A DNA stretch of 64,000 bases. Source: Marchantia polymorpha subsp. ruderalis. Lineage: Eukaryota > Streptophyta > Marchantiopsida > Marchantiales > Marchantiaceae. Shown here piece by piece: positions 4,851 through 33,351 of this stretch. The notes beneath the pieces are model-generated. The model had not been told where the DNA came from. It made no database searches and saw nothing but the letters and a program-made list of their open reading frames with translations. Location of the stretch: the NCBI GenBank assembly GCA_037833965.1, contig AP031354.1:29366001-29430000 (forward strand). The letters are read 5' to 3'. A program made the translations under genes and the position numbers. Each line of letters starts with the position of its first letter. Position 1 is the first letter of the stretch.

Positions 4851-5560
4851 GAGGGTGGACGTCAGTCTAGACTTCCCCAGTCCTTTTTGTTGTCGGAGGT
4901 GGGTAGTAGTTCATCTATGTGACCTGCACCGCCTAATGACACTGGAGTGAAAACAGAGGTTCTTACATCATCTGTTGTGGACGCAGACGTGCTATCTAGT
5001 GCAGTGATGCGGGTGACCACTTCAGTCTTGCGATCTCCATTGTTTTCAGCCACGGAGTTGATGGACTCTGGTATTGATTTGGCTCGAGTATTTCGGGTAT
5101 TAGCCACGTCGTGTGAGCGTGGGAGAGTCACTGCTACGAGTGCCGAGATACGTGAGGATATGGTTGAGGAGCCATCTTCAACGTCTATAATGTTCGAGGA
5201 GACGACTTGGCAGGCGGCAACGGCAAGGATGAAGTCCTTACCAGCGCGACCAGCCATTGATCGTGAGAGTATTGTCCCTGGTGTGTGTATGATGGACAAC
5301 CGGAGTGGCTTATTTTGCTTAGTAAGTTCTACCGGACAAGTGTATGTCCCAGCCAGAGTTTTGCTGGATTTTGGTGCACAACCCTTGATGTTGGGCAAGG
5401 CTGCATGCATTAGTTTGGGTATTTGGAGGTCCGAGTTGGAACCTTGCCCATTCCAGATCCAGACTTCACTTGGTGGCGCCAGCGATAGTTCCTATTTTAG
5501 ACCAGGGAGAGCATATCGGTGCAGTTGAGGCATGATCATGCTCATGATAGCTCGCAGTTT
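4851..5560 (+). pseudogene. Element A aspartic protease region relic
   Basis: A frame with MELMDSGIDL-like and VYVPARVLLD... segments matches the equivalent part of element B. The motif LLDFGAQP (about 5360-5383) corresponds to the retropepsin D-S/T-G active site, with the middle residue altered to Phe here. In B the same motif reads DSIAQP, so each copy has lost a different active-site residue. The protease would cleave the Gag-Pol polyprotein. It lies directly between gag and the methyltransferase. Confidence 0.6.
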
Positions 5561-7260
5561 GGAGTTTGTGCGGTGGTTACATTAGCAGAGTCATGATGTG
5601 CTTGTTGGTGGAGCTGTGTTATATCCGATGAGTTTTCGGATGGACTATTGGACGGAGACTGCTGCATATCGTCCTGGTTGGCGAGAGGTGTAAGCACCGC
5701 GAGGTGTTCAGCTTACTCGTACTAAAACTCTTCCCCGTGGTACGTATAAAACACGCAGTCTGGTGATGGACGTCTTAGCGAACTGCCAGTGAGATTTATT
5801 TCTCGGGATCGACCTCTTGGATCTTCATCTGCGGTCTTAGCATCCGTTGCGGGTTTCAGCGGAGTGCTTAACTCGCCTGATGACTTGTTGGAGGGGAACA
5901 TGTCAGCCGACGATACCCAGTCTGTGAGAATATGGAGGAGGTTGTGCGTTTTGCAGCGGTAGTGCCTTCACCCTTAGACGTTCCACTTTGGAGTTCTTGT
6001 CAGGCACTACAGCTGGAGGCTGATAGGTTGGTGAAGAAGGCCTGGACTGAAGCCTGTTTACCAGCAGAGGCAGAGAGATTCAGGTGACCGACTAGTATCT
6101 AGTTCTAGCACGCTATCACCATTGGTTACTACACCTATTGCATGGGAGTATTCCTCAAAGGGCATTTGTTTGTTGGATCTTTTTGGTGAGATCAGCACAG
6201 GTTTGGCTGCGGTGTTGCAGTCTGGTATTCTCGTACGGAGATACTTTTATGTGGAGAAGGACGAGACTGCACGTCGAGTCTCTTCACGACATGTTGCACA
6301 GTTGATGCAGCGTTTTCCTTCGTTATTGCCGCGATCAGCTGTTCGAGGATACCAGAAGGCGTTGCCTTCAGACATTTCGTTGCTAGGGGCGCCAGACCTT
6401 GACCGCGTTGGCCATTTTGATATGGTGATTGCGGGCTGGCCATGTCAAGTACACACACGCGCTGGACATGGAACAAGGTTGCATGATCCCAGATCTCGGA
6501 TGTTTTGGTAGATGATGCGAGTGTTACGTCATCTCCAGGTGAAGCAGACACATTCTCCAGCATACATTTTGGAGAACGTACCATTGTTGGATGACACTCG
6601 GGCTCAATTGATGGCGAGTGTCCATCAGGTCTGAGCATGGATTGGATCAGCAGTACTGTTAGATGTTGCGATGGTTGGATCACATGCTCATCGTGCACGT
6701 TTATGGTGGACTAACCTTTTGCCACGAGAGATATTGCGTTAGGCCTATGATTCTGTGCAGCGTGATCCTACACTCACCGTTGATAGTATCTTGGATGTTT
6801 TCCGACACTCTCAGGTGGTGAGAGTTGCAGACAGATCACCTATGGCGTTGGTGAACCGCGCAGGTCAACCACGGATGGCTTTACCTACGTTGGTCAGTTA
6901 TCTGACATCACATGCATATCGTGATGGTGGACCTGGACTACTGTGGGACAATACAATACATCAGTTGGTGGAGCTCAATGCTGATGAGAGAAAGCGTGCG
7001 ATGTGATTTATGATTGGTGTGACCGCAGCTGTTACAATTTCAGAGGCTTCGCGTCGTTAGGTTTTGGATCAAGCTATGGACTTGAACTGCTTGACGTGGA
7101 TTGTTAGCTTAGGTTTGGAGGAGCAACGCCGTTTGCGCGTTGATTTGGTGATTAGTACACCACTTGTAAGCTCATTGCCTACCAGAACGGTAGTAGCAAT
7201 GGCTGGGGGCGACATGCAAGATATTCGTCATTCTTGGAGTTCATGGGACGTGACGAGATG
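5561..7260 (+). pseudogene. Element A DNA (cytosine-5) methyltransferase domain, DNMT3/DRM-like, decayed
   Basis: In order along the + strand: motif I as GICLLDLFGEISTGL near 6164-6208 (S-adenosylmethionine binding), motif IV as IAGWPCQ near 6427-6450 with the catalytic Cys of PCQ, motif VI as YILENVPLL near 6560-6590, motif VIII as AHRARLWW near 6680-6706, and the RAM...G.T tail near 6995-7030. AHRAR followed by aromatic residues is characteristic of DNMT3/DRM enzymes rather than DNMT1/CMT. It sits between protease and reverse transcriptase. In-frame stops (near 6510, 6630, 6740 and 7004) make it a pseudogene. The region 5561-6110 is a linker with no recognised fold. Confidence 0.85.
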
Positions 7261-7339
7261 ACTCGCCAGAGTTGCAGCCCATGTAGTTGGAGAGTATTCT
7301 CAAGTGGAGGTGGCTACAAAGGAGGGTATGGAGAATCCT

Positions 7340-8420
7340 TCTTTGCAGGATGTAGCGTAGCAACCATTGATAGTGTCGCCTCCCTTTAATGTGTTTATGG
7401 AGAAGGAATGGGAGCCATTGATTGATTCCCAGATCACAAGAGGAAAGAGGCGACGATTGACCCAATTCCTACGAGACTATAGGAATTGTTTTGCCTTCAG
7501 TATGAAGGAGTTGGGTGTGTTGATTGGACCTGGTATACGGATAGAATTGGCTAGTGATATGCCAATCTTCTGTCGTGCTTATCGATACAGTGAGATGAAG
7601 AGAGATTTGATTTGGAGTAGGACGTTGGACCTACTGGAGGCTGGATTAGTGGAGTTATTGCATGGTGAGTATGCGTCAGCCACTGTCATGCCGGTGAAGA
7701 AGGATGTACATGACAACTACACGGATAGACGCATGTGTGGAGACTACCGTCATATCAATCGGCAGACAAAGTCCGATAAGTATGCCATGCATACACTTGA
7801 GGAGATCTTTGATGTGGTGGGACATGCGAGGATTTTTAGTACTTTGGATCTTTGAGCAGGATACCATCAGTTGCCAATTTGGAAGGAGGACAAGACCAAG
7901 ACAACGTTTTGGAGCGTCAACTCTCACGGCAAGGATTGTTTGTATTAGTGACGATTCTTACCCCTTGGGTTGAAGAATGCACCTGCCGAGTTTCAGAGGG
8001 TTATGGTTAGAATCTTGGCGGGGCTAGATTTTGTCAGATGTTACATTGATGATATCTTGATGTTTAGTGACATTGTGGAGCAACACCAGATACATTTGCA
8101 GATTGTGTTTGAGCGGTTGATGGCTCATGTTTTGAGGTTACATCCTGGGAAGTGTAAGTTCTTCCAGGAGAAGGTTGAGTACTTGGGTCATGTGATATAC
8201 CCAAGCGGTTTAGGAGTTCAGCAAGCAAAGGTGGAGGCTATTGCACGCATCCCTCGTCCCACAGATGTGAGTAGAGTTCGTGCATTCATGGGTTTGGCGA
8301 ACTACTATCGGAGGTATGTGAAGGGGTTTAGTGCTATAGCCAAGCCTTTGAACCAGTTGCTGAAGTCAGATCAGGAGTGGCAATGGGGGGAGATGAGCAG
8401 GAGAGAGCTTTTGTTGAGCT
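7340..8420 (+). pseudogene. Element A reverse transcriptase, Ty3/gypsy type, decayed
   Basis: The frame contains the gypsy RT signatures RMCGDYR.IN near 7731-7760, STLDL near 7840-7855, and the catalytic YIDDILMF near 8041-8066, followed by VEYLGHVI near 8175-8200 and the thumb region FMGLANYYRRYVKGFS near 8286-8330. RT copies the element RNA into cDNA inside Gag particles. A stop at about 7853 (TGA) falls where element B has an Arg codon (CGG), and a frameshift follows near 7920-7970. Confidence 0.85.
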
Positions 8421-8860
8421 GAAGGCAAGGTTGGTGGTCGCTCCCATCTTGAGGAGACCTATGAGAGGTCGTCCATACTAGTTGCACACTGATTGGAGTA
8501 TGTTGGGACTTGGAGCAGTGTTGACGCAGCGTGATGATGAGGGCAAGAAGTTTGTGGTTGCGTACGCTAGTCGTTCGAACAATGCAGCGGAGTCGCAATA
8601 TAGTTCGTACGAGGGAGAGTGTTTGGCAGCGGTGTGGGCTGTGGCACACTTCAGGCGTTATTTGTTTGGTACGCAGTTCACCCTTGTTACTGATCATCAG
8701 CCGCTCAAGTGGTTGATGGAGTCTGACAAGCTCACAAGGAAGCTTGCACGGTGAGCTCTCATCTTACAGGAGTACGACTTTTAGGTAGTGCATAGACCTG
8801 GAGTTGCGAACCTAGATGGCGATGGTTTGAGTCAAAACCCATGCACTAGCCAGGATGATG
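8421..8860 (+). pseudogene. Element A RNase H domain relic
   Basis: The frame from 8479 reads a typical gypsy RNase H: DWSMLGLGAVLTQ, AYASRSNN, SSYEGECLAAVWA and VTDHQPLKWL motifs in order, then the tether VHRPGVANLDGDGLS near 8785-8830. RNase H removes the RNA strand during cDNA synthesis. It is interrupted by a TGA at about 8752 and a TAG near 8784. This segment is missing from element B, where element C is inserted. Confidence 0.75.
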
Positions 8861-9800
8861 ATACTGGAGCTAGATGGCATGGCGAGGTTGATGAGGAGAT
8901 GGTGCCCAGTTCACATGCATCTGCTTTCATGTGTTGGTTACGAGGAGAGTTTAGTAGAGAGGATCACCTGACATCTTACTCTAGTCAGAGAGTCGATGGT
9001 CAATCTTCAGATCTAGAGGTTGAGGACGGTGATGTGGATCAGCGTGATGTTCACGATGATGCATTGGTGTTGGAGTTCATACGTACCAGTATGGTGCCAT
9101 GCACAGTGGGTGCCAAGGAGCAAAATTGTGTTCTCCAACGGGCGAAGAGATACCAATTGGAAGGATCACATGTTCTCCGAGTGTGGGAGGAAGGTATGGT
9201 ACGAGTAGTACTGCATCCGGCTCAAAGAACGCGCATTGCGAGGCATGCTCATGAGGAGTTGGGACATTTTGGAGTGAAGCGTACATATAACTTACTCCTT
9301 GGTAAGTATTGGTGGCGTGGTATGCTTATTTAGGTACAACAGTTGGTATTACGTTGCATAGTTTGTGATCGGGTGAGAGCATTGTTCAATGCCTCGATAC
9401 CAGAGTTACATCCATTACGACCCGAATATGTGGGTGAGATTATGTTCTCAGCGTGCAGAGCTCTTTCGGAGAGTTATGCCTGCAGCGTTTGAGAATCTTG
9501 CGATTGCTCAACATAGAGATACGTTGCGATATACAACCATTCGGGGAGGAGGTTATCGACCATCGATTCGTAGATTCCATGTGGGAGACTACATCTATCT
9601 ACAACAGACTGCACCGACGACATTGGATGTGACGGCGGGGTGCACAATCTTGCGAGTGCGGGAGGTGCACCTTCTGGAGTTCTCTTGTTGGAGGGTCGTG
9701 ACGACGTTGTTCGGAAGGTCATGTGCGCAATTGTGTGCCATGCCACCTTCCAAACGTAGATGGTAAGTAATATGGACCCAAGCTTAGCAGTAGTACGTGC
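8861..9800 (+). pseudogene. Element A integrase, catalytic core deleted
   Basis: The N-terminal HHCC zinc domain is present: H..H in ARHAHEELGHFG near 9232-9270 and C..C in RCIVCDRV near 9352-9376. Immediately after the segment at about 9395-9415 the sequence jumps to the C-terminal part (MWVRLCSQRAELFRR near 9428). Element B has about 180 further residues here, holding the D, D and E catalytic residues. The DDE core has therefore been deleted in A and this copy cannot integrate. The C-terminal part (GDYIYLQQ near 9585-9605) resembles the usual SH3-like tail. Confidence 0.75.
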
Positions 9801-9959
9801 TGGCTTGAGGTGCATGCTATGTGGGTCTACTAGTCAGACGGCCCGTATGTTGGTGTGTGATAGGTGTTTCAGGGGATGACACATGTTGTGCATGACTCCA
9901 CCTATCGATGTTATTCCGGCTGGACGATGGGTTTGTCCTCGATGTAATTCAGAGGGGTA
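9801..9959 (+). pseudogene. Element A PHD zinc finger downstream of integrase
   Basis: After the integrase tail the conceptual frame has C-x2-C (CMLC, near 9815), CDRC near 9860, an H...C pair near 9882-9893 and CPRC near 9936-9947, the C4HC3 layout of a PHD finger. The Trp normally preceding His is a stop codon in this copy. PHD fingers commonly read histone H3 tails. In chromoviruses the same position is held by a chromodomain, so a targeting role is a reasonable inference. Confidence 0.7.
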
Positions 9960-10124
9960 GATGACTTGATCTTCACATGTTATGAATTGCAGATAGTCGA
10001 TTAACGATGGGGCAACATAGCAACCGACCTACTAGTTTGCGCACCCACGAAGGTGTATAGCATGTAGTTGTAGATAGGGCTACCAGGGAGTTAAAGGGAC
10101 CTGACCGCCAGCTAGGGGGGCGAG

Positions 10125-10609
10125 TTGTGACATTTGAGTGTGTATTATCTCGCGCCTTATATGTGTGTATGTGTGTGTATATGAATAGCATGTCAGCGAT
10201 GTAGGATTTATGGCAATACATATTCGCACGACAGCTGTCATGTAGTTTTCGGTCTTCTATATTTAGTAGTCGCATAGGGTTTCAGATCGTAGGGTATAGC
10301 ATCGAAGGAGACTCAAAGAACGTAAGTTCTTCGAGTTGAGCTTAGCGCGTTGGGAGTAGTGCCCGTGAGCGTCAGACCTGGAGTCTCCGAGTGTGGAGTG
10401 GGTTGGGCTTGACTAGGTTTATGATGGTGACGGTTTTGCTAGTAGGGTAAACGATCGACGGGAGTTCCTGCGGGCAATCTCCCGTTTATTTAAGTTGTGA
10501 CATTTGAGTGTGTACTCTCTCGCGCCTTATATGTGTGTATGTGTGCGTATGTGTATGTGAATAGCATGTCAGCGATGTAGGATGTATGACGATACGTATT
10601 CGCACGAAA
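10125..10609 (+). repeat. Element A 3' terminal block: direct repeat - core - direct repeat
   Basis: After the polypurine tract comes a 109-bp unit (10125-10233, starting ttgtgacatt and ending cgcacgaca), a core of about 260 bp (10234-10494), and a second unit (10495-10609) similar but not identical to the first. Element B has the same plan. The core contains a hairpin with the arms ctcaaagaac/gttcttcgag (10312-10335). The whole block is probably the 3' LTR with direct repeats at its ends; a tandem of short LTRs is the alternative. Confidence 0.6.
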
Positions 10610-10779
10610 GTGTTGTTTTTACCCACCTTTGTTTCACGAGTAGCTATGTTGCTACTCTTGACAATTTTTCCATTAAGACAAAGATTTTTTGATATGAATT
10701 GTCATACAGTCAAGTTTTGAATTGACGATTGTTACGACAAAAATTAAAAAATGCCAACTATTTTTCAATCCAAGCACAA

Positions 10780-18357: not shown

Positions 18358-18362
18358 GTCGC
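18358..18362. repeat. Target-site duplication of solo LTR C1 (right copy)
   Basis: The bases gtcgc directly follow the LTR end (taccaca) and match 13415-13419. Confidence 0.85.
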
Positions 18363-20080: not shown

Positions 20081-20328
20081 ATAAGCCTCAAGCGAAAGAG
20101 CCATATTGCGTACAGTAGGTTCCATTGGAAGGTAGTTTTGAATTTACTCTATAATGCGAAGTAAAACTGGTAATGCAACTAGTCAGGTGAATAGTGCTCA
20201 AGGTAAGTTTTGACTGAATGATCCTTGGAAGTTCATTTGAATTTTTGAGGCTGTGATTATTACACTCATCAAGAGTGAGGAGCTTTTCAAAATCAAAGTG
20301 AGTCACATTAGATTGTATCGTATCTTTT

Positions 20329-20839
20329 GTCGTGCGACTCAGTATCGCCATACATCATACATCGCTGACATGCTCTACTCACAACTCACACATACATACA
20401 CAAGTAACGAGAGTGTCCACACAAAGGTATCACAACTAAAATCAGTGTCGAAACACAAGTACACAGAGAGTCGAGCCCAACTCACTACTCGCAGGTAGAA
20501 TCAGAGTCAAAGCTAGCGGGACTGACATATCCCTACGCGAAAGGCTCAACTCGAAGAACTGACAGTTCTTCGAGCTCGCCTCGAATATATCCCTGGAAGG
20601 TGTCGACTCCATCCAACGCTCCTCGCCCGTCTGCCGCGGCCCAACGTTAGCCGACTCCCAATGTTCCCCGACTTCAACTCGAACTCAACGTGCTCAACTC
20701 AAATCGACCCAACGCCTCGAGCCATGACAGCTGTCGTGCGACTCAGTATCGCCATACATCATACATCGCTGACATGCTCTACTCACAACTCACACATACA
20801 TACACAAGTAACGAGAGTGTCCACACAAAGGTATCACAA
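20329..20839 (-). repeat. Element B 3' terminal block: two identical 108-bp repeats around a 296-bp core
   Basis: Next to the polypurine tract is a 108-bp unit (20732-20839, minus-strand start ttgtgatacc, end cgcacgaca). The same unit, without any difference I can see, recurs at about 20328-20435, with a core of about 296 bp between. The core holds a perfect hairpin ctcgaagaactg/cagttcttcgag (20550-20574). The block parallels that of element A. Identity of the two units suggests they are young or were made identical during reverse transcription. Confidence 0.7.
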
Positions 20840-21013
20840 CTCGCCCCCCTAGCTGGCGGTCAGGTCCCTCTGACTCCCAAGTAGTCCTATCTACAACTAC
20901 ATGCTATGCACCTTCGTGGATGCGCGAACCAGTAGGCCGGGTGCTATATCGCCTCATCGTTAGTCGCCTATCTGCAATTCATAACATGTGAAGATCAAGT
21001 CATCTACCCTCTA

Positions 21014-21151
21014 AGTACATCGAGGACAAACCCATTGTCTAGTAGGAACAACATCGATAGGTGGAGTCAAGCACGACATGTGCCATCCCCTAGAATACCT
21101 ATCACACACCAACATATGGGCCGCCTGATCAGTTGACCCACATAACATACA
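21014..21151 (-). pseudogene. Element B PHD finger
   Basis: The last 46 residues of the polyprotein have C-x2-C, VCDRY, GWHMSC and WVCPRC, a C4HC3 PHD finger in which the fourth zinc ligand is Tyr (Cys in element A). The Trp before His and the Trp before the last CPRC are present. It lies directly after the integrase tail and ends at the stop at 21011. PHD fingers usually bind modified or unmodified histone H3 N-termini; here it could steer integration. Confidence 0.7.
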
Positions 21152-22335
21152 CCTCAAGCCGGCACGTACAATCGCCAAGCTTGGGTCCATAGTATCATCC
21201 ACGTTTGGGAGGTGGCATGGCGCACAGTTGCGCACATGATCCTTCCAAACGACACCGTCACGACCCTCCAACATGAGAACTCGAGAAGATAACAGCTCTC
21301 GCACTCGCAGAATAGTGCGTCCTGCTGTCACATTCAACGTAGTCGGTGTAGTCTGCTGTAGATAGACGTAGTCTCCCACGCGGAACCTACGAATCGATGG
21401 TCGATAACCTCCTCCTCGAATAGTTGCATACCGCAACGTATCCCGGTGCTGAGCAATCGCAAGGTTCTCAAACGCTGCAGGCATAACTCTCCGAAAGAGC
21501 ACTGCACGTTGAGAAGACACTCTCACCCACATATCTGGATCATCAAGGTTCACCACCTCGCTAGACTCACGACGAATTGCTGCAGGCAAGTCTGGATCTC
21601 GGCCGTACAATAGAAAATATGGTGAAAACGAAGCCAAGGATGCTTGACGACTGAATCGATATCCCATGGCCAACCATGGTAACTTAATATCCCAGTCCCC
21701 AAGATGCCCCTTCTGTAGGCCATACTTGCGCAACGCTCTCTTCACCGTCTGTACCATCCGCTCAGCCAAACCATCCGCCTCTGGATGATCTTGGGAAGTA
21801 GTCCGGTGATCAATCAGCGTCTTGTCACACAAGACCTAAAACTCACCCTGAAACTGTGTCCCCTGATCAGTCAACACCTCAGCTGGTGAACCAAAGTGAC
21901 TAAGCACCCTGTCAAGGAAAGCATATGCTACTCCCTCACTCGCCTTGTCAGGTAATGCCACCAACTCAATCCACTTGGAGAAATGCTCCACCATCATCAA
22001 CACATACCAATGATGTCGTGTAGTCAAAGGTAGTGGTCCAGCAAAGTCCAAACTCCAACGGTAACCCAATCCCATGATAGGTAAGGGATGTAACTTTGGT
22101 GTCGGGGCATTGAACGATGCCCTCACTCGATCACAAACCATGCAACGTGATATCAACTGCTGCACCTGCGTATGCATACCACGCCACCAATACTGACATA
22201 GGAGTAAGTTGTACGTACGCTTCACTCCAAAATGCCCCAACTCCTCATGAGCATGCCTCACAATGCGTGCTCTCTGAGTTGGATGCGGTACTACCCGTAC
22301 CCTACCGTCTTCCCACACTCGAAGAACATGCGCAG
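21152..22335 (-). pseudogene. Element B integrase
   Basis: From the N-terminal side: zinc domain HAHEELGHFG ... RCMVCDRV, then the catalytic core with SLDFAGP (first Asp), EVLTDQGTQF (second Asp) and HPEADGLAERMVQTVKRAL (Glu), followed by a C-terminal domain with MGYRFSRQASLASFSPYFLLYG and GDYVYLQQ. All three catalytic acidic residues are visible. Integrase inserts the cDNA into the genome. A single TAG at 21833-21835 interrupts the frame, in place of a Gln codon (CAG to TAG). The N-terminal end is cut at about 22335, where C2 gag sequence is fused to it. Confidence 0.8.
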
Positions 22336-22797
22336 CAGGCTAGGAAAGATTCGCAATCTGTCTTCATCACTGGTCTCGCGATTGGTGATGGAGACAGACT
22401 CGAAGAGCTTTATGTATGAATCTGCATCATCGTCGTCGCCCGTTCCCTTGTATCTTGGATACGAATGTTTTGTGAAAGGTTGGGAAAACACCTGGCGGAG
22501 ATTGGCTTGATGGTCTGCCATTGGTGATCCTGTCAACAGACTGCTCCTAGGGTGGCCTAACCCAGGAAGAGTTTCTGTCGGAGGGATTTCCAATAGAACT
22601 GTTAGCTCAATGCTCGCAGTAGGTGAACTAGAACGCCTTTGGCTTCCAGCAGTCGGCGATGGCGATCTTTCTGCAGAGTTCTCACCTTGAGTCTTCTTTT
22701 TAGTTCGCCGTTTTGCTTCTACGGCTTTTTCCGAATCTCGACGGAGCTTTCGTGTGGCTCTCGCACTCAGGTCTCCCACACCATCGCTCGTCGACAT
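22336..22797 (-). pseudogene. Element C2 gag, N-terminal fragment fused to B integrase frame
   Basis: The frame from the Met at 22797 starts with a basic, Ser-rich region (RKLRRDSEKAVEAKRRTKKK), then YPRYKGTGDDDDADSYIKLFE and DEDRLRIFPSLL, the beginning of a retrotransposon gag domain. After SLL the sequence becomes element B integrase without a gap. The Met lies 44 bp downstream of the primer-binding site, as expected for gag. Gag is truncated to about 150 residues. Confidence 0.65.
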
Positions 22798-22840
22798 TCA
22801 CCGAGCATTGCTGCTCAAGTACTCTGGTGTTGACGCACTG

Positions 22841-22858
22841 TCCCCGGCAGCGGCGCCA
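22841..22858 (-). other. Primer-binding site of element C (tRNA-Asp type)
   Basis: On the minus strand tggcgccgctgccgggga follows the LTR end by 22 bp. It matches the well-known tggcgccgttgccggggA motif of plant Tat/Athila-like elements, complementary to the 3' end of tRNA-Asp, with one difference. Confidence 0.75.
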
Positions 22859-22880
22859 AAAAGAAGTTGTCGGCTCCTTA

Positions 22881-25850
22881 TGTAATAACCCACCAAAGGC
22901 TAAAACTGCAGTATGGTGGTAAAAAGATCGAACCCACAGGGACAGAGGCAACACACAGAGTACAAAGTGTCACGTTTAACAGACTTTTGTAGAGTTTGAA
23001 TTCTCAGGCGACTGTCACTCCCAGAAATACTGCAGTGCTCGACTCGGAGGCCACTCGGAGTATGCTCAACTCGGAGGTCGCTCGGAGGATGCTCGACTCG
23101 GAGGATGCTCGGAGGATGCACAGTGCAGCGTAAGTCACTCAACACACACACACACACCTGAAACTGGAAAAGCACAACTCGGAGGTCGGTCAGGACCTCC
23201 GCTTAGGATTTCAGGGGGAAAGTATCTCAAAAGTTCACTCAGAGGCTCTGCAGGTAGTGACTCCCACTCCGGCTTTTACTGCCCTTCCGCCAGGAACTAG
23301 CGTAGGGAACCCGGACTAGACTTCCCACTTCGGAACAAAGTTCCTCATACGCAGTGGACGTCACCCTCGACTCACACCAAGCGCAGAGAGTATAGGCCCG
23401 ACTGAGAACTCAACTGAGGCACAATCCAGTAACACACACACACAACCTTAATTGCTAACCAAGGTTTACACGAAGTAACAAAACTTCACTTTGGCATTCA
23501 GGGGAAACTTCCCGTAGGAGTACAATCAGGATATGTCACTCGAAGGAGTAAGGGGGAACTGTTCAAGTATCTAACTCGCAACCGGCTCTGAGCTTCAGAA
23601 ATCACCCGCAGGTGCAGATCCGCACTACTCAAGTCTCTAACCGGTGTACTAGCTCTGAACATTCAGCCGAAGGCCTTCAGCTACAACATGCGGTAACTTC
23701 ACTATGCTGCAGCTTCTCTACGTGGTGCCAGGACCAAATGCACAAACACGCCGAGAAAGTGAGTTCCTGATCTGCACTTCCGAAACTGGAAGAGTCCCAA
23801 GGCAAAACGCCTTGAACTACTTTATACCCTCTAAGGTCCTAACTAACACTACTTTGCACTATCTGCTTACTCTAAACTACTGCACGAAACCAAACTACAC
23901 TACATCACTCTGCAGATCCGGTGCTGCGCCTCCTGCGCGCCGGACTGGCTCGCACCCTCTCTCTACCCTGCCAATCTTCCGACCGGCTGCGCAACCCCAG
24001 TCGCCGAAGGACTGTTGTCACTTCCGACTCTAAGTGCGCCATAGTGTCGCGCGCACCCGACAAGAAGGCTTCTAATTTCCTCGCTACTCGCCGCCGACTC
24101 CGACTGTCACCCTCCGTCAATGCCGCCGCCCGAAGCTCAAACTCCCTGAGTGTGATCTTCTCTTGGGCCGCCACTTCCCAATGGGCGTATCCTCTTAGAC
24201 AGTGAGTCACCCGCGTCACCAACTCTTCTCGCGTCCGGCTGCTGCCTTCCACCTCTGCTAGCTGCATCTCCGCATCTGCGCCCAGTCACTAATGTCCCAC
24301 CTCTCGGGATGTGGGCGGAATCCACGCGAGGGCTTGTGTTTCTCCTGCAAATACTCGCGCACCATCTCCGGACATGTCCAGTTCCATCCCCACAGGAGGA
24401 AATCAAGCTTCAGCCTTGTTAACACATCTTGGAATGCGCGCAGACCGATCTGCGGCACTCTGAGTGGAGACACTCGCAACTGGGGAACCTTCGACATCTT
24501 CCGTGCTTTTCCTGCACACACACAGACGTTCTTCCTTCCGCTCGATCTCTCACAATCGCCGCTGCGCGTCGGCCGCTCAGACATTGACTGAAATCGCTCT
24601 CCCTTCTCTTGCGCGCTCAAGTTCGCTGCTCGCAAACTCTCTGCAAGGTCCGTCAAGATCCTCTTGCAACTCGTCTCCGCACTCTCTCTTCTCACTGCAG
24701 GTCTCTCCGCCCTTGCGCTTAATCTCTGAAGCTGGAAAACTCACAATCAAGAATGAGAGAATGAGACTGGAGAGCAGCCTTTTCTTCTCCGAATTCAAGA
24801 TCGCCCAACGTTCTCACTGGTTACAATCAAACTTGATTACGCAGCCGGCTATACGGCCTAACGGTTCTCCCTCGCATGCTCGAATTCACGACTCCGCACT
24901 GCGCGCATTCGCATGCGTGAACGTTGAATTCTCTCGCCGCCATCGTCTTCCGGACTCGAGTTCGCCGCAGTGGAGCGTATGCTTCGACTAGGTTGTCTTT
25001 TCCTAACCTGCCCATCGCCGGAGGCGTATCGCCGCTGGAGTATTCCTTCTCCGTCGGCGCGAATTACGCCGGCGCGTATGCGTACCACTCGTTTTGTCCG
25101 TTCTACCCCGCATATCGCCGACGGCGCATATCCCGCCGGCGTGAATCATGCCAGCGCACCCGCCTGTCTGCGTCACGTCGGAGGCGTACATCCCGCCGGC
25201 GCTTCTCTTCCGTTGGCAGCCGTCAAAGGCGCTTCCGCCTCTGAGTTGATCTCCTCTCATGAGCGCGTGGTTCCGCCGAAGGCGCATCGCCGAAGGCGTA
25301 CGGAAGTCCTCTCCGACGGTGAACCCTAGCGCGAACAGCGCATGTCCGGATGCGAGTTTTCCGACACTCATAACTTCTTCGTCCCTGATCCATTTCCGGC
25401 GCTCTTGGGCTCGTTAGAACGAGCGTCCCGAGCTCTTTCCAATGCAACCTCAACTAACTGGAACTACTGTGAATCCTGATCGTTATGAAGGTTTCCCTCC
25501 CGCGCTAGCGGCGTATCGCCGAAGGCGCACTCATGGTCGGAAGCCTTCAGAGGTCCTTGCCGGCTTCTGACGTCTTCAGCGACATCTCCTTCGGAGGTGT
25601 CTGTGCCGGGAGCGTACCTTCCCTAAACGCTGAAAGCGCGTGGGTAGAGACACCTCAGTAAAGGAGATATTGCCGAAGGCACCAAAGGCATTTGGCGCTG
25701 GTACGTCCAACTTCGCGATTCTTCGTGACCTCGTGACGATCTCCTCAATCCACTCTATTTAACGTACCATTTCCTAACTACAGACACTGCTTCGGTATTT
25801 CTTTTCTAAAATTGTTTAAATTCTGCACAAAAAAAAAGTGTGTTACCACA
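22881..25850 (-). repeat. Element C2 LTR (internally deleted)
   Basis: It has the same ends as C1 and closely similar sequence throughout, but about 1.92 kb of the ORF is missing. The deletion joins two ctgcgc strings that in C1 lie at 14809-14814 and 16733-16738. Flanking parts of C1 and C2 differ by scattered substitutions and small gaps. Outside the ORF remnant no other gene is seen; 24860-25800 is the GC-rich LTR start. Confidence 0.8.
23905..24497 (-). pseudogene. Deleted copy of the LTR-encoded coiled-coil protein
   Basis: The N-terminal part (MSKVPQLRVSPL to ERWDISDWAQ, 24497 to about 24290) and the C-terminal part (MQLAEVEGSSRTREEL to the end, 24267-23905) match the C1 protein. The middle, including the Pro/Ser-rich domain and most of the coiled coil, is gone. 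The 1,924-bp deletion is not a multiple of three, so the two parts are out of frame and no complete protein can be made. Confidence 0.75.
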
Positions 25851-26905
25851 CTCAACAAAAGCTCTCTCCTGCTCATCTCCCCATTGCCACTCCTGATCCG
25901 ACTTCAGCAACTGGTTCAAAGGCTTCACTATAGCACTGAATCCCTTCACATATCTCCGGTAATAGTTCGCCAAACCCATGAATGCACGAACTCTACTCAC
26001 ATCCGCTGGACGAGGAATGCGTGCAATAGCCTCCACCTTTGCCTGCTGAACTCCCAAACCACCTGGGTAGATCACATGACCCAAGTACTCCACCTTCTCC
26101 TGGAAGAACCTACACTTCCCAAGATGTAACCGTAGACCATGAGCCCTCAACCGCTCAAGCACAATCTGCAAATGTATCTGGTGTTGCTCCACCGTGTCGC
26201 TAAACACCAAGATATCATCAATGTAACATCTGACGAAATCTAGCCCCGCTAGAATCCTGTCCATCACTCTCTAGAACTCAGCAGGTGCATTCTTCAACCC
26301 AAAGGGTAAGAATCGCCACTGATACAACCAATCCTTGCCGTGAGAGTTGACACCCCAAAACGCTGTCTTGGCCTTGTCCTCCTCTCGAATCGGCAACTGG
26401 TGGTATCCCGCCCGAAGATCCAAAGTACTAAAAATCTTCGCATGTTCCACCACATCGAAGATCTCCTCAAGTGTAGGCATGGCATACTTATCGGCATTCG
26501 TCTGCCGATTGATAGGACGGTAATCTCCACACATCCGCCTATCCGTGTAGTTGCCATGTACATACTTCTTCGCTGGCATAACAGTGGCTGAAGCATACTC
26601 ACCATGCGACAACTCCACTAACCCAGCCTCCAATAACTCCAACGTCCAACTCTTAATCAAGTCCCTTTCCATATCACTATATCGATAGGGACGACGGAAG
26701 ATTGACGTATCACTAGCCAACTCTATCCGTATGCCGGGTCCAATCAAAGTACCCAACTCCTTCATACTGAAGGCAAAACAACTCCTATAGTCACGTAGGA
26801 ATTGTATCAACCGTCGCCTCTCTCCTCCGGTGATCTTAGAACCAATCGATGGCTCCCACTCCTCCTCCATGAAGTCACAAGAGGTAGTTGATACTGTCAC
26901 TAGTT
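25851..26905 (-). pseudogene. Element B reverse transcriptase (cut by C2 at its 3' end)
   Basis: The minus frame contains RRMCGDYRPINRQT, FSTLDLRAGYHQL, FLPFGLKNAPAEF and the catalytic YIDDILVFS (YIDD at 26225-26214), then VEYLGHVI and GLANYYRRYVKGF. All RT blocks of a gypsy enzyme are in order. One stop separates the two halves at about 26268-26270 (after NAPAEF). The frame is cut at 25851, where the LTR of C2 starts, before RNase H. Confidence 0.85.
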
Positions 26906-26906
26906 G

Positions 26907-28625
26907 CTATGACACCTCCTCCAAAGGAAGGTTCTCCGTACCCTCCTTCGTAGCAACCTCCCCGTGACTAACATCTCCAACTACATGGGCGTCTACTCCC
27001 GCAAGTCCTCTAGTCAAGTCCCATGAACTCCAAGGATGACGAATATCTCGCAAGTCACCCCCAGCCATTGCCACTACCGTCCCGGTAGTCAATGAGCTAA
27101 TAAGTGGTGTAACAACCACCAAATCTGCGTGCAAACGGCGTTGCTCGGCCAAACCCAAGCTCACAATCCACGTCAAGCAGTTCAGGTCCATAGCCTTACC
27201 CAAAACCTGACGACGCGATGCCTTTGAAACTGAAGAAGCCGCGGTCACACCAGTAAGAAATCCCATCGCACGCTCCCTCTCATCAGCGTTGGGCTCCACC
27301 AACTGATGTAGGGTACAGTCCCACAGTAGTCCAGGTCCTCCATCACGATATGCATGTGATGCCGGATAACTGACCAACGTAGGCAAAGCCATCCGAGGCT
27401 GACCTACGTGGTTCACCAATGCCATGGGTGACCTATCCGCCACTCTCACCACCTGAGAGTATCGAGAGACATACAAGATCCTGTCAACGGTGAGGGTAGG
27501 ATCACGATGCACAGAATCATACGCATGACGCAATATCTCTCGTGGTACAAGGTTGGTCCACCACAAACGTGCACGATGAGCACGTGAACCAACCCTCGCA
27601 GCATCCAACAACACTGCTGATCCAATCCATGCCCTGACCTCATGGACACTCGCCATCAACTGGGCCCGAGTGTCACCCAACAATGGTACGTTCTCTAGAA
27701 TGTATGTGGGAGAATGTGTCTGCTGCTCCTGGAGATGACGTAACACTCGTAGCATCTCCCAAAACATCCGAGATCTCGGGTCATGTAACCCTGCTCCATG
27801 CCCAGCGCGTGTGTGCCCCTGACATGGCCATCCCGCAATCACCAAATCAATATGTCCAACTCGATCGAGGTCTGGCGCCCCCAGCAATGAAATGTCTGCA
27901 GGCAACGCCTTCTGGTATCCTCAAACAGCTGATCGCGGCAACAACAAAGGAAAACGCTGCATCAACTGTGTGACATGTCGTGAAGAAACCCGACGTGCAG
28001 TCTCGTCCTTCTCCACGTACAAGTATCTACGTACAAGAATACCTGACTGCAACACTGCAGCCAAACCCGTGCTCATCCCTCCAAAAAGATCCAGCAAACA
28101 AACACCCTCTGGGGAATACTCCCATACGATAGGTGTAGTAACTAATGGTGATAAGATGCTAAGACCACATACTAGCCGACCACCTGAGACTCGCTCTGCC
28201 TCTGCTGGTAAAGAGGCCTCACTCCAAGCCTTCTTTACCAACCTATCAGCCTCCTGCTGTAATGTGTGGCAAGAATCCCAAAGTGGAACATCCAACGATG
28301 ATGACACTGCCGCTGCGAGACTCACCATCTCCTCCACCTCCTCATAGACTGGAGTATCCTCGGCTGACATGTTCCCCTCCAACAAGTCATCAGGCCATGT
28401 GAGCACTCCACTGAAACCCGCAATAGAGGCTAAAACTGCAGGAGAAGATCCAAGAGGTCGATCTCGAGAAATGAACCTCACAGGCAGCTCACTCATACGT
28501 CCATCACCGGACTCCCAACCAGGGCGATAAGCTGCCGTCTCCGTCCAATAATCCATCCGAAATCCCATCGGATATAACACCGCTCCACCAACAAGCACAT
28601 CATATGACTCTGCTAATGTAATCAC
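26907..28625 (-). pseudogene. Element B DNA (cytosine-5) methyltransferase domain, DNMT3/DRM-like
   Basis: The catalytic domain of about 320 residues runs from VCLLDLFGGMSTG (motif I, 28103-28077) through the catalytic PCQ of VIAGWPCQG (Cys codon 27824-27822), ENV (27695-27687), AHRARLWW (27581-27558) to RERAMGF...RRQVLGKAM (motif IX/X region, 27275-27186). Motifs are in linear I-to-X order, unlike plant DRM where they are permuted, yet AHRAR and the G.....RY...E spacing after motif I point to the DNMT3/DRM group. The first 170 residues are linker. Only one stop (about 27918-27920, TGA where A has CGA) breaks the frame, so all catalytic residues survive. It would transfer methyl groups to cytosine in DNA. 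Between protease and RT, it was presumably released from or kept in the Pol polyprotein. Confidence 0.88.
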
Positions 28626-28652
28626 CGATCGAACTCCAAACTGCGAGCTATC

Positions 28653-29640
28653 CTAAGCATGACCATGCCTCAACTGCACTGATATGCGCTCTCTTGTCAT
28701 CCTGTAAGACCTGTCGCTGGTGCCACCGAGTGATGTCTGAATCTGGAACGGACAAGGCTCCAACTCGGACCTCCGAACTCCCAAACTAATGCAGGCAATC
28801 TTGCCCAACATCAAAGGCTGTGCAATAGAATCCAGCAACACTCTGGCTGGGACATACACCTGTCTTATAGCACTCACCAAGCGAAATACACCGCTCCGGT
28901 TGTCCACCATACACACACCAGGGACAACCCTCTCCCGATCAATGGCTGGTCGGGCTGGCAATGACTCCATCCGTGCCGCTGCCGCCTGCCATGTCGACTC
29001 ATCGCTCGATGGAGTCGTAGAGGATAGCTCCTCACCAATAGTCTCGCCTATCTCGGCACTCGTAGCAGTGATACTCCCACGTTCACACAACGTGGCTGCT
29101 GCACGAAAAACCCGAGCCAAGTCAATCCCAGAGTCCATCAGCTCCATAGCTGAAAATAATGGAGATCTCATCACTGAGCTAGCCATCCGCGTCACTGCAC
29201 TAGATGGTGTGTCCGTGTCCACCACACGTGACGTAGATGTCTCAGTCCTCCCACTAAGGCCACTAGGTGGTACAGGTCTCATGGATGAAGTACTGCCCAC
29301 CTCTGACAACAAAAACGACTGGGGAAGTCTGGCCTGACGCCCACCCTCACCCCTCTGAGGATCCAACTCCCCTGTCGCACCGCGTGGCTCTAGAGCTCAA
29401 GCAGCACCTCTAGTCACTGCAACCGATGCCTCCACCTGTGCTGCACTCGCTAGATGAGGGAAATCCTCTTCCTCGTAAGAGGTGGAAGTGCTCGCCCCAG
29501 AACTCACCATAGCAGCAAGCCTCTGCTCCAACTGCTCAATACGAGCAGCCATCGCGCTCTCTGTGGCCGAAGTAGCACTCGTTACAAGACGTCCAACTAC
29601 ACCGGCACCTCGACCACCTCTACCAGCACGGCCACCTCGA
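28653..29640 (-). pseudogene. Element B aspartic protease region
   Basis: The frame 29366-28653 contains ELMDSGIDLARVFRA and VYVPARVLLDSIAQPLMLGK (about 28860-28800); LLDS.AQP corresponds to the retropepsin active site, with Gly replaced by Ile. The stretch 29640-29370 is a linker continuing the gag frame (ARIEQLEQRLAAMV) with two stops. The position between the zinc knuckles and the methyltransferase matches element A. Confidence 0.6.
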
Positions 29641-29642
29641 CC

Positions 29643-31057
29643 TCAAGAAGCATCACCACCACGACCTCTACCACCAGATGTCAACTCTGGATGAAGGTCA
29701 AAACACCGATCTCGAGTATGACCTGCTCGACCACAGTGGTCACACACCACCTGTACTGACTGGGGTCTAGCCTGTGAACTCTGACCTCCGGCCTCCTGGG
29801 GACAATCTCTCCACCGATGATCCCCTCCACATGTCCAACATGCTGGTCCCTGCTGTTGGCCAGCAAACGACGGCACTAGTGCACGTGCCCATGTATCTCT
29901 AGCGGCTGTCTGGTGTCGTGTCTGCACTCCGCGACCCCCACCACTACCACCACCAAAGGGTCTAGACTGTGCCGTGCTCTGCGGAACACGAAAGGTAGTG
30001 GCTGTGTCTCTAGCGAATGAAGAAGTCACCACTCTCTCCTCCACTATGTTAAGCTCAATCTTCTCAGAAAGAGCAAACACATAGGCCAATGTCGGTGACG
30101 CATCGCTCAAGAGGGTAGCATCCCGAACCCTCCGCTGTAGCTCTCTGTCCAGTATCCTTTACCAATACTGGACCGCCTGTGCCTCAGTTACACCGTGAGT
30201 AACTGAGATCAACCGCCGCATACGCGTGTATGCCTCCCGAAGACTCTCACCAGTCTTCCGCTCAAACTCCTCAACTTCTCTGTCCTCACCCCCTGATAGT
30301 TCTTCCTCAACCTCTTGAAGAACTCAGGAATGGGGCTGAACGAAGGTACGCAAGTAGTCTCTCCACTCATGCTGGCAACGCCAACAGCACCGCTGGTGGT
30401 ACCTGCTCCACTACTACCATCGGTGATGCTACCACTCGCCCCTCAACTGGTACCAACACCACCCTGGATGATCGACGTATAGTTTGGAGACCAATGACGC
30501 CTCCATGCGTCAATCTCCACAGCATACTCTCTCCCAAACTCATGGTAGTCATCCATGGGAGGCCCCTCCAGATGCTGAAACAACCCCTTCCATGCGAAGA
30601 AGGGTGTAAACAACGTGGGGTTACACAAGAACTGCATATCGCACCACGTGTCAAACTCCTGGATGAAATCATCCAACTCAATGGTGCCCACTGCACCAGA
30701 GTACCGCCGTGGGCCCTTCATGGTCCTGTACATACCGTCCATGTCCCCAGTCCACGAGTGTGGGATCCTAGATGATATCACCACCAAAGATCCGCTATCT
30801 GCCACACCTCGCGCCTCTCCAACCACTGATGCGCTAGGATGAGGTAGCCGATACCTCAACCCACTCCGCGTAAATCCTCCACGGTCCTCAACGGAACCAC
30901 CAAACTCTTCCGTAATGACTGACTCACCAATCGGCACCACTGCCACAACTCCACCTGCCCTCGTCCCTGCACTAACCTGCTCTAGCCCTACTGACTATGG
31001 GTATGGGCAACCTAACCTGTCATCACTGCAAGAAGACTCTCCTGGTCCACTGGTCAT
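29643..31057 (-). pseudogene. Element B gag (capsid/nucleocapsid)
   Basis: From the conserved ATG (31057), the frame has a variable N-terminus, a capsid part (IELDDFIQEFDTW, FFAWKGLFQHLEGPP, IDAWRRHWSPNY) and a nucleocapsid with knuckles CWTCGGDHRWRDC and CDHCGRAGHTRDRC, then an RG-rich tail. Stops near 30960, 30440 and 29640 and a frameshift near 30280-30120 break it. One stop at about 29640 is TGA where A has an Arg codon. Gag forms the particle and binds RNA. Confidence 0.75.
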
Positions 31058-31606: not shown

Positions 31607-31673
31607 TTCACAACCAAAAAAATAAAAAAAATAAAAATATAAAATCCTATTACAGCTGGAGATTTTTTTAATG

Positions 31674-32005
31674 AGTTCGGGAGTAACTCTGATAACCGGA
31701 GACAAACTGGCAGTTCCAGCCGTGCGAAGGTTCAAATCGAGGACAGCGGTGAAGCGCAGAAGAAGTTTGCTAATGCAAAGTCTATCTCATCTGCTCAATA
31801 CTTTGGGGACCAGAATAAGGCTGGCGATTCAGAAAGTCAAGTGCGGTTGCAGAAGTTCGCTAGCTCAAATGCGATCTCAAGCGACGACTTTTTCGACCGT
31901 GACGAAGGTCGTGGTAGTCCATCAGCTGTTGATCTGAGTCCTAGTGAATTGATGAACAAGCTCACTCAGCAGATAGCAGCTCTTAATTCTTTGTTGGACC
32001 CTTGA
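31674..32005 (+). pseudogene. ArfGAP (AGD8/9/10-like) terminal exon fragment
   Basis: Behind a T-rich stretch and an AG acceptor (about 31673), an open frame of about 110 residues ends with TGA at 32003-32005. It contains QIEDSGEAQKKFANAKSISS, AQYFGDQNKA, LQKFASSNAISSDDFF and VDLSPSELMNKL. These match the C-terminal region of plant Glo3-type ArfGAPs (AGD8/9/10), which act at the Golgi in COPI vesicle formation. No catalytic ArfGAP zinc finger exon is seen nearby on either strand. It lies between B's leader and a methyltransferase fragment, so it is either captured by an element or the last remnant of a disrupted gene. Confidence 0.65.
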
Positions 32006-32306
32006 CGATGAAAACTTATATGCGGATGGAAGTCTTTGTGAGGCTCTAAATTAGCTTCACCCGGTAAGGACGATCTTGAGTACTTACTGTGTCCATCTAG
32101 ACCTTGAAGCTTCACGCCGTGTTTTCTGGTTTTAGAACTTCACTCTATATTCTTTATACAGGCTTGTGAAAATAATGATATTAGTCTCAAATTTATCTCC
32201 CCATGTGAGAAGTGCGAGGCTCGAGATAGTCCGATGGGGATAGTTGCCACCATCAAGGCAGGCCTCGTTTCTGATTCAGCAATTGACGCAAGAAGAGAAC
32301 TATTTT

Positions 32307-32760
32307 AGCCTCTATAGCGGGTTTCAGTGGAGTGCTCACATGGCCTGATGACTTGTTGGAGGGGAACAGGTCAGCCGAGGATACTCTAGTCTATGAGGAG
32401 GTGGAGGAGATGGTGAGTCTCGCAGCTGCAGTGTCATCATCGTTAGATGTTCCACTTTGGGATTCTTGCCACACATTACAACAGGAGGCTGATAGGTTGG
32501 TGAAGAAGGCTTGGAGTGAGGCCTCTTTACCAGCAGAGGCAGAGCGAGTCTCAGGTGGTCGGCTAGTATGTGATCTTAGCACCCTATCATCATTAGTTAC
32601 TACACCTATCGTATGGGAGTATTCCCCAGAGGGTGTTTGTTTGCTGGATCTTTTTGGAGGGATCAGCACGGGTTTGGCTGCAGTGTTGCAGTCAGGTATT
32701 CTTGTACGTAGATACTTGTACGTGAAGAAACTCAACGTGCAGTCTCGTCCTTCTCCACTT
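32307..32760 (+). pseudogene. Third copy of the retroelement methyltransferase (N-terminal fragment)
   Basis: The + frame from LTWPDDLLEGN through VCLLDLFGGISTGLAAVLQ to LVRRYLYV is nearly identical to element B 28400-28015, including motif I. Immediately after tacgtg the sequence continues as the reverse complement of the following 35 bases of the gene (to about 32760), and then into unrelated sequence. The fragment is on the opposite strand to B. Region 32006-32306 and 32761-33053 have no recognisable gene. Confidence 0.7.
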
Positions 32761-33053
32761 CCTGTGGATTGTCTGCAGTCCGTCGTTCCATTCTACTTTT
32801 TTCAGACTGGGTGATGGACCCAATGGTTGTCTCGAAAGCTCACTTTGATACATCGAGTTCGGTGGGTTTTTATCGGAAGCCGGTTGTGAGGATGACTCGC
32901 GTCGAACTGTTGCAGCAGGACCTGTTGTGGTTTTTGTGAAGATTCTTTTACATGTTCGATTTCTTGTAGGCACAGTTGAGGCGTCACTAGAGGGAAAAGC
33001 CTTCGGGAAAAGGAATAATAGTGCCTGCTTCGGAAAATTGTCAGTTCTTTGAG

Positions 33054-33346
33054 TAAAATCAGTGTCGAAACACAAGTACACAGAGAGTCGAGCCCAACTC
33101 ACTACTCGCAGGTAGAATTAGAGTCGAAGCTAGCGGGACTGACATATCCCTACGCGAAAGGCTCAACTCGAAGAACTGACAGTTCTTCGAGCTCGCCTCG
33201 AATATATCCCTGGAAGGTGTCGACCTTATCCAACGCTCCTCGCCCGTCTGCCGCGGCCCAACGTTAGCCGACTCCCAACGTTCCCCGACTTCAACTCGAA
33301 CTCAACGTGCTCAACTCAAATCGACCCAACGTCTCAAGCCATGACA
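33054..33346 (-). repeat. Isolated core of the element B terminal block
   Basis: About 293 bp are nearly identical to 20436-20731, including the perfect hairpin (33167-33191), but without the 108-bp units on either side. On the minus strand it reads TGTCATGG ... CTGATTTTA. It is probably what is left of B's 5' LTR. Confidence 0.6.
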
Positions 33347-33351
33347 CTTTT

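What the first reader, a model, noticed from the sequence alone, without database searches (positions are those of the whole stretch)
26907..28625. DNMT3-like DNA methyltransferase encoded inside a Ty3/gypsy retrotransposon
Motifs I, IV (PCQ), VI (ENV), VIII (AHRAR) and X lie in linear order between protease and reverse transcriptase in B, and the same layout is found in A. A mobile element carrying its own cytosine methyltransferase could methylate its own or host DNA, to hide from or tune silencing. Methyltransferase-bearing retrotransposons have been reported from dinoflagellates and a charophyte alga; I do not know of one described with this layout in a land plant. Three separate copies here show that the domain belongs to the family and is not a chance insertion.
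Basis: partly seen in the sequence, partly recalled or inferred. Interest (0 to 1): 0.92.

Follow-up and report, generated by a model that had tools for sequence, protein, structure and literature searches.

The report
Liverwort retrotransposon with DNA methyltransferase
A family of jumping genes that has moved recently in a liverwort genome carries its own DNA-methylating enzyme, kept intact by selection, which suggests that the element itself makes use of DNA methylation, the mark that plants normally use to silence such elements.

Summary
Window 26907-28625 (minus) encodes an unpermuted DNMT3-class C5 methyltransferase inside a Ty3/gypsy-type element (B); element A (plus) has the same domain. 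The third "copy" is a 427-bp fragment inside an insertion. The genome is, by inference, Marchantia polymorpha. Both window copies are decayed, but one search lists 36 ORF1 places (a lower bound), 18 without an internal stop. In 30 copies read, the catalytic Cys is kept in 29 and ENV in 30; domain dN/dS between two subfamilies is 0.146.

Layout: ORF1 gag-PR-DNMT3, in-frame UAG, ORF2 RT-RH-IN-PHD. The UAG is present in 29 of 30 copies, with the CAR-YYA readthrough context in 27. Ends are split direct repeats (A...B-A-B) with TG...CA termini and 4-bp target duplications in three of three copies examined. Relatives lie in other liverworts, Sphagnum, Closterium and metagenomes.

Closest described element: KnitGypsy-Dnmt3 of Klebsormidium (PMC5890265). 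The land-plant family, ORF1 placement, conserved stop and PHD finger were not found in print in my searches. Methylation of its own cDNA is inference.

The parts
33054..33346 (-). Element B, 5' terminal repeat A1 (293 bp), starts TGTCATGG; flanking 4-bp duplication AAAG at 33347-33350
   Evidence: 97.3% to A2; boundaries read
31622..33053 (.). Approximate insertion in B's leader; holds fragment C
   Evidence: only window 31361-31621 of this stretch matches leaders of other copies
32303..32729 (+). Fragment C: captured piece of the DNMT domain
   Evidence: 97% to B 28009-28435
26910..30742 (-). Element B ORF1 (gag with two CCHC knuckles, protease region, DNMT3); broken by a frame change near 30270 and stops at 29643, 29397, 28653, 27921
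   Evidence: tblastn of P0095, 94-95%; stops
27123..28148 (-). DNMT3-class methyltransferase domain of B (approximate limits)
   Evidence: Pfam PF00145; structures; codon map
26901..26909 (-). Conserved ORF1 stop UAG CAA CUA in readthrough-type context
25852..26906 (-). Start of ORF2 of B: reverse transcriptase, with a TAG at 26273-26271
   Evidence: Pfam RVT_1 in two pieces
22331..25850 (.). Other repeat inserted in B's pol
   Evidence: A aligns to B up to 25851 and again from 22330
21839..22318 (-). Integrase H2C2 and DDE core of B
   Evidence: Pfam PF17921 E 3.3e-16, PF00665 E 2.6e-11
21017..21151 (-). PHD finger at the C-terminus of ORF2 of B
   Evidence: Pfam PF00628 E 6.8e-9; structures
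20732..20841 (-). Repeat B1; followed by GC and A2 (junction CACGACA-GC-TGTCATGG)
   Evidence: 100% to B2
20437..20729 (-). Repeat A2
   Evidence: 97.3% to A1
20328..20437 (-). Repeat B2, ends CACGACA; flanking 4-bp duplication AAAG at 20324-20327
2785..10610 (+). Element A, second subfamily; its 5' A1 repeat was not found in the window
   Evidence: 79-86% to B; nearest rows P0096/P0001
6122..7144 (+). DNMT3 domain of A (approximate; five stops)
7358..7366 (+). Conserved ORF1 stop of A, UAG CAA CCA
10123..10610 (+). B1-A2-B2 repeats of A with the same GC junction

Best explanation
This is a recently active family of Ty3/gypsy-type retrotransposons in Marchantia, in at least two subfamilies, that has taken up a DNMT3-class cytosine-5 methyltransferase as a standing, selected part of its coding sequence. 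SHOWN from sequence: ORF1 encodes gag, protease region and DNMT3; an in-frame UAG follows; ORF2 encodes RT, RNase H, DDE integrase and a PHD finger; the ends are split direct repeats A1...B1-A2-B2 with TG...CA termini and 4-bp target duplications. INFERRED: most ribosomes stop at the UAG and make Gag-PR-DNMT; a minority read through and add Pol, so that the methyltransferase is made in Gag amounts and packaged with the RNA; during or after reverse transcription it puts methyl groups on the new double-stranded DNA (CG by analogy with the tested DIRS enzymes of PMC5890265), so that the copy arrives in the genome already methylated. The likely benefit is that the incoming DNA passes as host-like or has damped expression that lowers host damage; the PHD finger on the integrase probably steers integration by reading a histone tail.
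For: Domain and class. Family-wide presence: 36 ORF1 places, 18 without internal stop. Selection: between-subfamily dN/dS DNMT 0.146, gag 0.147, PR 0.110, against 0.615 for the tail after the DNMT (19 x 8 copies, the three copies L074-L076 left out). Catalytic Cys 29 of 30, ENV 30 of 30. Stop: UAG in 29 of 30, CAR-YYA in 27 of 30; background 12 of 2586 other TAGs in the same loci; CAR YYA is reported as essential for TMV readthrough in plants (PMC2754532, passages). ORF2 has no stop in the next 498-499 codons in 22 of 29 and in two copies stays open to a stop at the end of the PHD. Eleven predicted proteins of Marchantia, Calypogeia, Sphagnum and metagenomes end 67-73 residues after the domain. 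Ends and duplications; junction 16-mer 171 times in the genome, reversed control 0. Youth: A1/A2 differ at 0 of 255 (plus a 17-nt indel) and 1 of 295 sites in two copies.
Against: No activity, expression or packaging was tested. KnitGypsy-Dnmt3 gave no methylation in the yeast assay of PMC5890265, called inconclusive there. The copies that carry the stop are related, so the 27 of 29 stand for few independent events; the copy that encodes P0095 itself (L055) and L061 have CAACAA, which does not fit CAR-YYA. An ATG 36 nt after the stop is kept in 28 of 29, so re-initiation could replace readthrough. Some relatives have DNMT and RT in one frame (P0121, P0061, P0127, P0139), so the stop is not universal. 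C-to-T decay at CG and CHG shows only that old copies were methylated, by whatever enzyme.
Confidence: 0.6

Rival explanations
1. The domain is real and selected, but it acts on RNA or serves as a structural, nucleic-acid-binding part of Gag rather than as a DNA methyltransferase.
For: It ends ORF1, the Gag-side frame; KnitGypsy-Dnmt3 was inactive on yeast DNA (PMC5890265, passages). PMC5890265 raises RNA methylation for the LINE-borne enzymes.
Against: Catalytic Cys and ENV are kept in 29 and 30 of 30; the closest class is DNMT3, a DNA enzyme, while DNMT2, an RNA enzyme, scores about 25 bits against 92.
Confidence: 0.15
2. The enzyme works for long-term balance with the host: it self-silences the family or raises methylation around it, so lowering damage, and is not needed for a single transposition round.
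For: Old copies decay as methylated DNA does: in B, C-to-T 4.8% at CG, 2.7% at CHG, 1.5% at CHH against young copy L066; young-young control 1.3, 2.0, 1.2%. PMC5890265 proposes this as one option.
Against: The host's own methyltransferases explain the same decay; selection as strong as on gag and PR points to a part needed in each round.
Confidence: 0.2
3. Passive cargo: a captured host gene that is decaying.
For: Both window copies carry stops in the domain.
Against: dN/dS 0.146, 18 of 36 places without internal stop, and the domain in relatives down to about 31% identity in Closterium.
Confidence: 0.03
4. Pol is made by re-initiation at the ATG 36 nt after the stop, not by readthrough.
For: ATG kept in 28 of 29 copies.
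Against: The same frame is kept, and the UAG with its hexamer is kept across two subfamilies while the two codons before it differ.
Confidence: 0.3

Closest known systems
KnitGypsy-Dnmt3 (Klebsormidium nitens; PMC5890265, abstract, sections 9, 11, 15 and passages read)
   [quoted passage not shown] Here it closes ORF1 before a conserved UAG, in liverworts and Sphagnum, with a PHD finger after the integrase and 4-bp duplications. I found no K. nitens sequence to align, so common descent is untested
SymbioDIRS-Dnmt3 and SymbioLINE-Dnmt (dinoflagellates; PMC5890265)
   Same: Retroelement-borne cytosine methyltransferase
   Different: Tyrosine-recombinase DIRS and LINE elements; independent acquisitions according to that paper
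DIRS / PAT-like elements (PMC2685390, passages)
   Same: Split direct repeats (PAT type); a methyltransferase domain in DIRS-like elements
   Different: Those use a tyrosine recombinase and are described as lacking protease and integrase; their methyltransferase is the unrelated Dam-like type (PMC5890265). Here: DDE integrase and target duplications
Chromoviruses (Ty3/gypsy with a C-terminal chromodomain; recalled, and seen in P0146)
   Same: A histone-reading module after the integrase
   Different: PHD finger in place of a chromodomain

Membership tests
Ty3/gypsy LTR retrotransposon | RT and RNase H before a DDE integrase with H2C2 finger | tested here: met
   window B pieces; P0100, P0125, P0143; two genomic copies
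Ty3/gypsy LTR retrotransposon | TG...CA ends and a short target-site duplication | tested here: met
   TGTC...GACA with AAAG, TCTT, AAGA in 3 of 3 copies examined
Ty3/gypsy LTR retrotransposon | Two equal full LTRs | tested here: not met
   A1 alone at the 5' end; B1-A2-B2 at the 3' end
Ty3/gypsy LTR retrotransposon | tRNA primer-binding site | not tested
   Not searched
DIRS/PAT-like elements | Split direct repeats | tested here: met
   Window B and two genomic copies; element A has B1-A2-B2, its A1 was not found
DIRS/PAT-like elements | Tyrosine recombinase, no DDE integrase | tested here: not met
   DDE integrase present; no recombinase domain among the Pfam hits of seven relatives
KnitGypsy-Dnmt3 | Unpermuted DNMT3-class domain under purifying selection | tested here: met
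KnitGypsy-Dnmt3 | DNMT in the Pol ORF with RT | tested here: not met
   UAG between them in 29 of 30 copies, though in the same frame
KnitGypsy-Dnmt3 | Same clade as the K. nitens elements | not testable with these tools
   No K. nitens protein among the hits
DNMT3 | Nearest to DNMT3 among C5 methyltransferases | tested here: met
   elements plus DNMT3A against 10 phage enzymes, support 99, with a long DNMT3A branch and only one, partial, DNMT3 row
DNMT3 | De novo CG methylation | not testable with these tools
   Needs an assay
DRM (plant rearranged DNMT3) | Permuted motif order | tested here: not met
   Order I-IV-VI-VIII-X

The most novel reading that the evidence does not exclude
An integrase-type retrotransposon that carries a complete chromatin kit: a DNMT3 made in Gag amounts through a conserved leaky stop, which methylates the new DNA before it enters the genome, and a PHD reader on the integrase that chooses the site. 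Its split repeats keep an internal copy of the two joined ends (CACGACA-GC-TGTCATG), from which the termini can be rebuilt, perhaps through an end-joined or circular intermediate that a DDE integrase then opens. New insertions would thus be born methylated, and the element, not the host, would write the first epigenetic state of its own copies.
Probability: 0.3. Interest if true: 0.88.

Novelty: new variant of a known kind. Interest (0 to 1): 0.74.

Why it matters
Cytosine methylation is the main weapon of plants against transposons, so an element that keeps a methyltransferase under selection turns the usual picture round. The kind was described from a dinoflagellate group and one charophyte, where it is hard to study. 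[quoted passage not shown] a liverwort family with many recent copies limits that statement to vascular plants at most. If the genome is Marchantia, a tractable laboratory plant, the open question of what a retroelement gains from a DNMT becomes directly testable. The conserved UAG and the split repeats with a DDE integrase are separate, testable novelties of retroelement biology.

Tried and rejected
Considered and rejected: chance ORF; DRM, CMT/MET1 or bacterial origin as the closest class; an alternative genetic code for the in-frame stops (other copies lack most of them); passive cargo. Led nowhere: viral contigs hold no relative of the element, only phage-type C5 methyltransferases; search 3 with alignment A2 gave 7 hits and no Klebsormidium or host DNMT3, so the tree has a single, partial DNMT3 outgroup; structure prediction never ran; a genome-wide list of all DNA_methylase genes did not complete. 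In one search minus-strand loci had not been turned, so its counts are wrong; one search replaces it. The CAR-YYA motif alone is no rarer than chance in the window (4 found, 3.7 expected); only its place at the ORF1 stop is telling. The moss/liverwort branching inside the bryophyte clade (Sphagnum row nearer Marchantia than Calypogeia) has support of only 83-89 and is left open. The RT tree has only four rows without DNMT, one of them (P0147) a very long branch inside the DNMT group, so it shows no more than agreement with a single lineage.

Full report
CHECK. Pfam finds DNA_methylase in the second (E 1.7e-9); the best solved structures are DNMT3A and DNMT3B, and a profile of eleven relatives scores DNMT3A 92 bits, DRM 45, M.HaeIII 43.5, M.HhaI about 35, DNMT2 about 25. 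Motifs I, IV (PCQ), VI (ENV), VIII and X stand in linear order, so it is not a rearranged DRM. Frame analysis shows a TGA in the domain and other in-frame stops in B. Element A on the plus strand (2785-10610) has the same layout, 79-86% identical to B, with five stops in the domain. The third 'copy' is a 427-bp captured piece.

SOURCE. The closest proteins are Marchantia polymorpha gene models (P0016 98%, P0001 84%), and the window's genome encodes P0095 (Mp_4g09160) at 100%. The genome is held without a name, so the species is inferred. It has 241 Mb in 9 contigs, and the window is C5:29366001-29430000.

COPIES. P0095 (1278 aa: gag, protease region, DNMT) matches 36 places in the genome (37 rows, two of them one copy); 18 have no stop inside (the tool calls its counts lower bounds, and window copy B itself is not among them). 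Thirty were read (L055-L084). There are two subfamilies, about 94-100% and 84-85% to P0095; window B belongs to the first and A to the second. Motif IV keeps its Cys in 29 of 30, ENV 30 of 30, motif VIII 29 of 30, QAMD of motif X 29 of 30, one of these with a stop a few residues on. Nei-Gojobori between the subfamilies (19 x 8 copies; L074-L076 left out): dN/dS gag 0.147, linker 0.284, PR 0.110, stretch before DNMT 0.178, DNMT 0.146, tail 0.615. Synonymous divergence differs along ORF1 (0.20 to 0.75), which suggests exchange between subfamilies. Within subfamilies the DNMT ratio is 0.29 and 0.21. Window A against B gives 0.215 for the DNMT.

STOP BETWEEN DNMT AND RT. ORF1 ends with TAG about 70 codons after the domain in 29 of 30 copies; the end is lost in L076. 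The next six bases are CAACCA in 26, CAACTA in 1 and CAACAA in 2, so 27 of 30 fit CAR-YYA. The window copies have CAACTA (B) and CAACCA (A). Elsewhere in the same loci 12 of 2586 TAGs are followed by CAR-YYA. The frame after the stop is the same and has no stop for the next 498-499 codons in 22 of 29; in two copies it was followed, piece by piece, to a stop at the end of the PHD finger. CAR YYA after UAG is reported as essential for readthrough in TMV, with 32% readthrough measured in plants (PMC2754532, passages). An ATG 36 nt after the stop is kept in 28 of 29, so re-initiation stays possible. Eleven predicted proteins from Marchantia, Calypogeia, Sphagnum and metagenomes end 67-73 residues after the domain, and many other metagenome proteins end 77-137 residues after it (88 proteins examined), so a stop in this region seems old; but P0061, P0121, P0127 and P0139 run on into RT.

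ENDS. B has A1 at 33346-33054, then B1 20841-20732, A2 20729-20437, B2 20437-20328. The outer ends read TGTCATGG...CACGACA, and the inner junction is CACGACA-GC-TGTCATGG. Two genomic copies, one per subfamily, have the same arrangement. Flanking duplications are AAAG (window B), TCTT and AAGA: 3 of 3, each 4 bp. The 16-mer CACGACAGCTGTCATG occurs 171 times in the genome, its reversed control 0 times, and lies 3393-3416 bp after ORF1 in 17 of the 23 ORF1 places on contigs C1-C5. A1 and A2 differ at 0 of 255 sites (plus one 17-nt indel) and 1 of 295 sites in the two copies and at 8 of 293 in window B, all transitions. So the family moved recently, and B is older. Split direct repeats are the mark of PAT-like tyrosine-recombinase elements (PMC2685390, passages), but the element has a DDE integrase and target duplications. 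PMC5890265 notes the same mixture for KnitGypsy-Dnmt3 (Fig. 4 legend).

PHD FINGER. ORF2 ends with a PHD finger (E 6.8e-9), nearest among solved structures to CHD4, DPF2 (ubi-d4) and PHF21A. It is also present in metagenome relatives P0125, P0137, P0139, P0143.

RELATIVES. Searches (94 proteins; 70; 7), each scoring only 8000 candidates, name Marchantia, Riccia sorocarpa, Calypogeia fissa, four Sphagnum species and Closterium sp.; most rows have no name. No row names Physcomitrium, a hornwort, a vascular plant or Klebsormidium; with capped candidates this is not proof of absence. In the DNMT tree (83 rows) the window rows fall in a 22-row clade (support 100) of Marchantia, Calypogeia, Sphagnum and metagenomes; Closterium is a separate clade further out. 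Against ten phage enzymes all 22 element rows group with DNMT3A (99) and form one clade (86), with a long DNMT3A branch. In some metagenome relatives (P0125, P0133, P0137, P0138) the DNMT lies between RNase H and integrase; they are close in the DNMT tree, so the domain has probably moved once within the lineage.

METHYLATION TRACES. Against a young copy, window B shows C-to-T at 19 of 394 CG (4.8%), 11 of 409 CHG (2.7%) and 19 of 1287 CHH (1.5%); a pair of young copies shows 1.3, 2.0 and 1.2%. Window A shows 9.7, 12.2 and 6.6% against L084. The decay stops in B stand where the relatives have R or Q, as expected from CGA and CAG. This fits methylated DNA but does not say which enzyme methylated it.

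HOW IT WORKS. Shown: a selected, catalytically intact-looking DNMT3 at the end of ORF1; a conserved in-frame UAG before Pol; recent spread; integrase-type insertion. Inferred: readthrough sets much DNMT and little Pol; the DNMT is packaged with Gag; it methylates the element's cDNA before integration. PMC5890265 proposed cDNA methylation and showed de novo CG methylation in yeast for the DIRS enzymes, not for KnitGypsy-Dnmt3 (passages; section 11). My odds: DNA methyltransferase acting on the element's own DNA about 0.6, readthrough rather than re-initiation about 0.7.

LITERATURE. Searches for DNMT-bearing retrotransposons in bryophytes, for split repeats in gypsy elements and for PHD-bearing elements found no description of this family; subscription papers and preprints are not held. 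PMC12344493 (passages) repeats the streptophyte and dinoflagellate cases only. PMC6338049 (passages) says such transposons are not present in land plants, such as tracheophytes. In PMC6453930 and PMC10952607 (passages) the passages seen on DNMT3 and retrotransposons mention none.

Noticed in passing
window 13420-18360 and 22881-25853: A second repeat family, 88-93% identical between the two places, one of them inserted in B's pol. The longer place has an 810-aa open frame (14633-17065, minus) with no Pfam match.
   Followed up: partly
window 31661-32010: Beside fragment C the insertion holds coding-like sequence that reminded me of a plant ArfGAP C-terminus (from memory, not tested); the insertion may be a gene-fragment-capturing transposon.
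   Followed up: no
P0137 and P0143 (metagenome proteins), C-terminal 170-180 residues: After the PHD finger both carry a Rossmann-like tail (DPWA.S ... S-P-W or SPP) that may be a second, adenine/N4-type methyltransferase; Pfam N6_N4_Mtase only at E 0.19 for one and nothing for the other.
   Followed up: partly
P0125, P0133, P0137, P0138: DNMT between RNase H and integrase instead of before RT.
   Followed up: partly
G000 C2:31464985/31465368, C5:31860330/31860734, C3:23620053/23620320, C1:5153001/5153703: Pairs of B-A junctions 267-702 bp apart, which suggests tandem B-A-B-A-B ends, perhaps from recombination or integration of a joined form.
   Followed up: no
ORF1 of both subfamilies: Synonymous divergence varies from 0.20 (tail) to 0.75 (stretch before the DNMT) along ORF1, which suggests exchange of segments between subfamilies.
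   Followed up: no
window A1 33054-33346 against A2 20437-20729: All 8 differences are transitions.
   Followed up: partly
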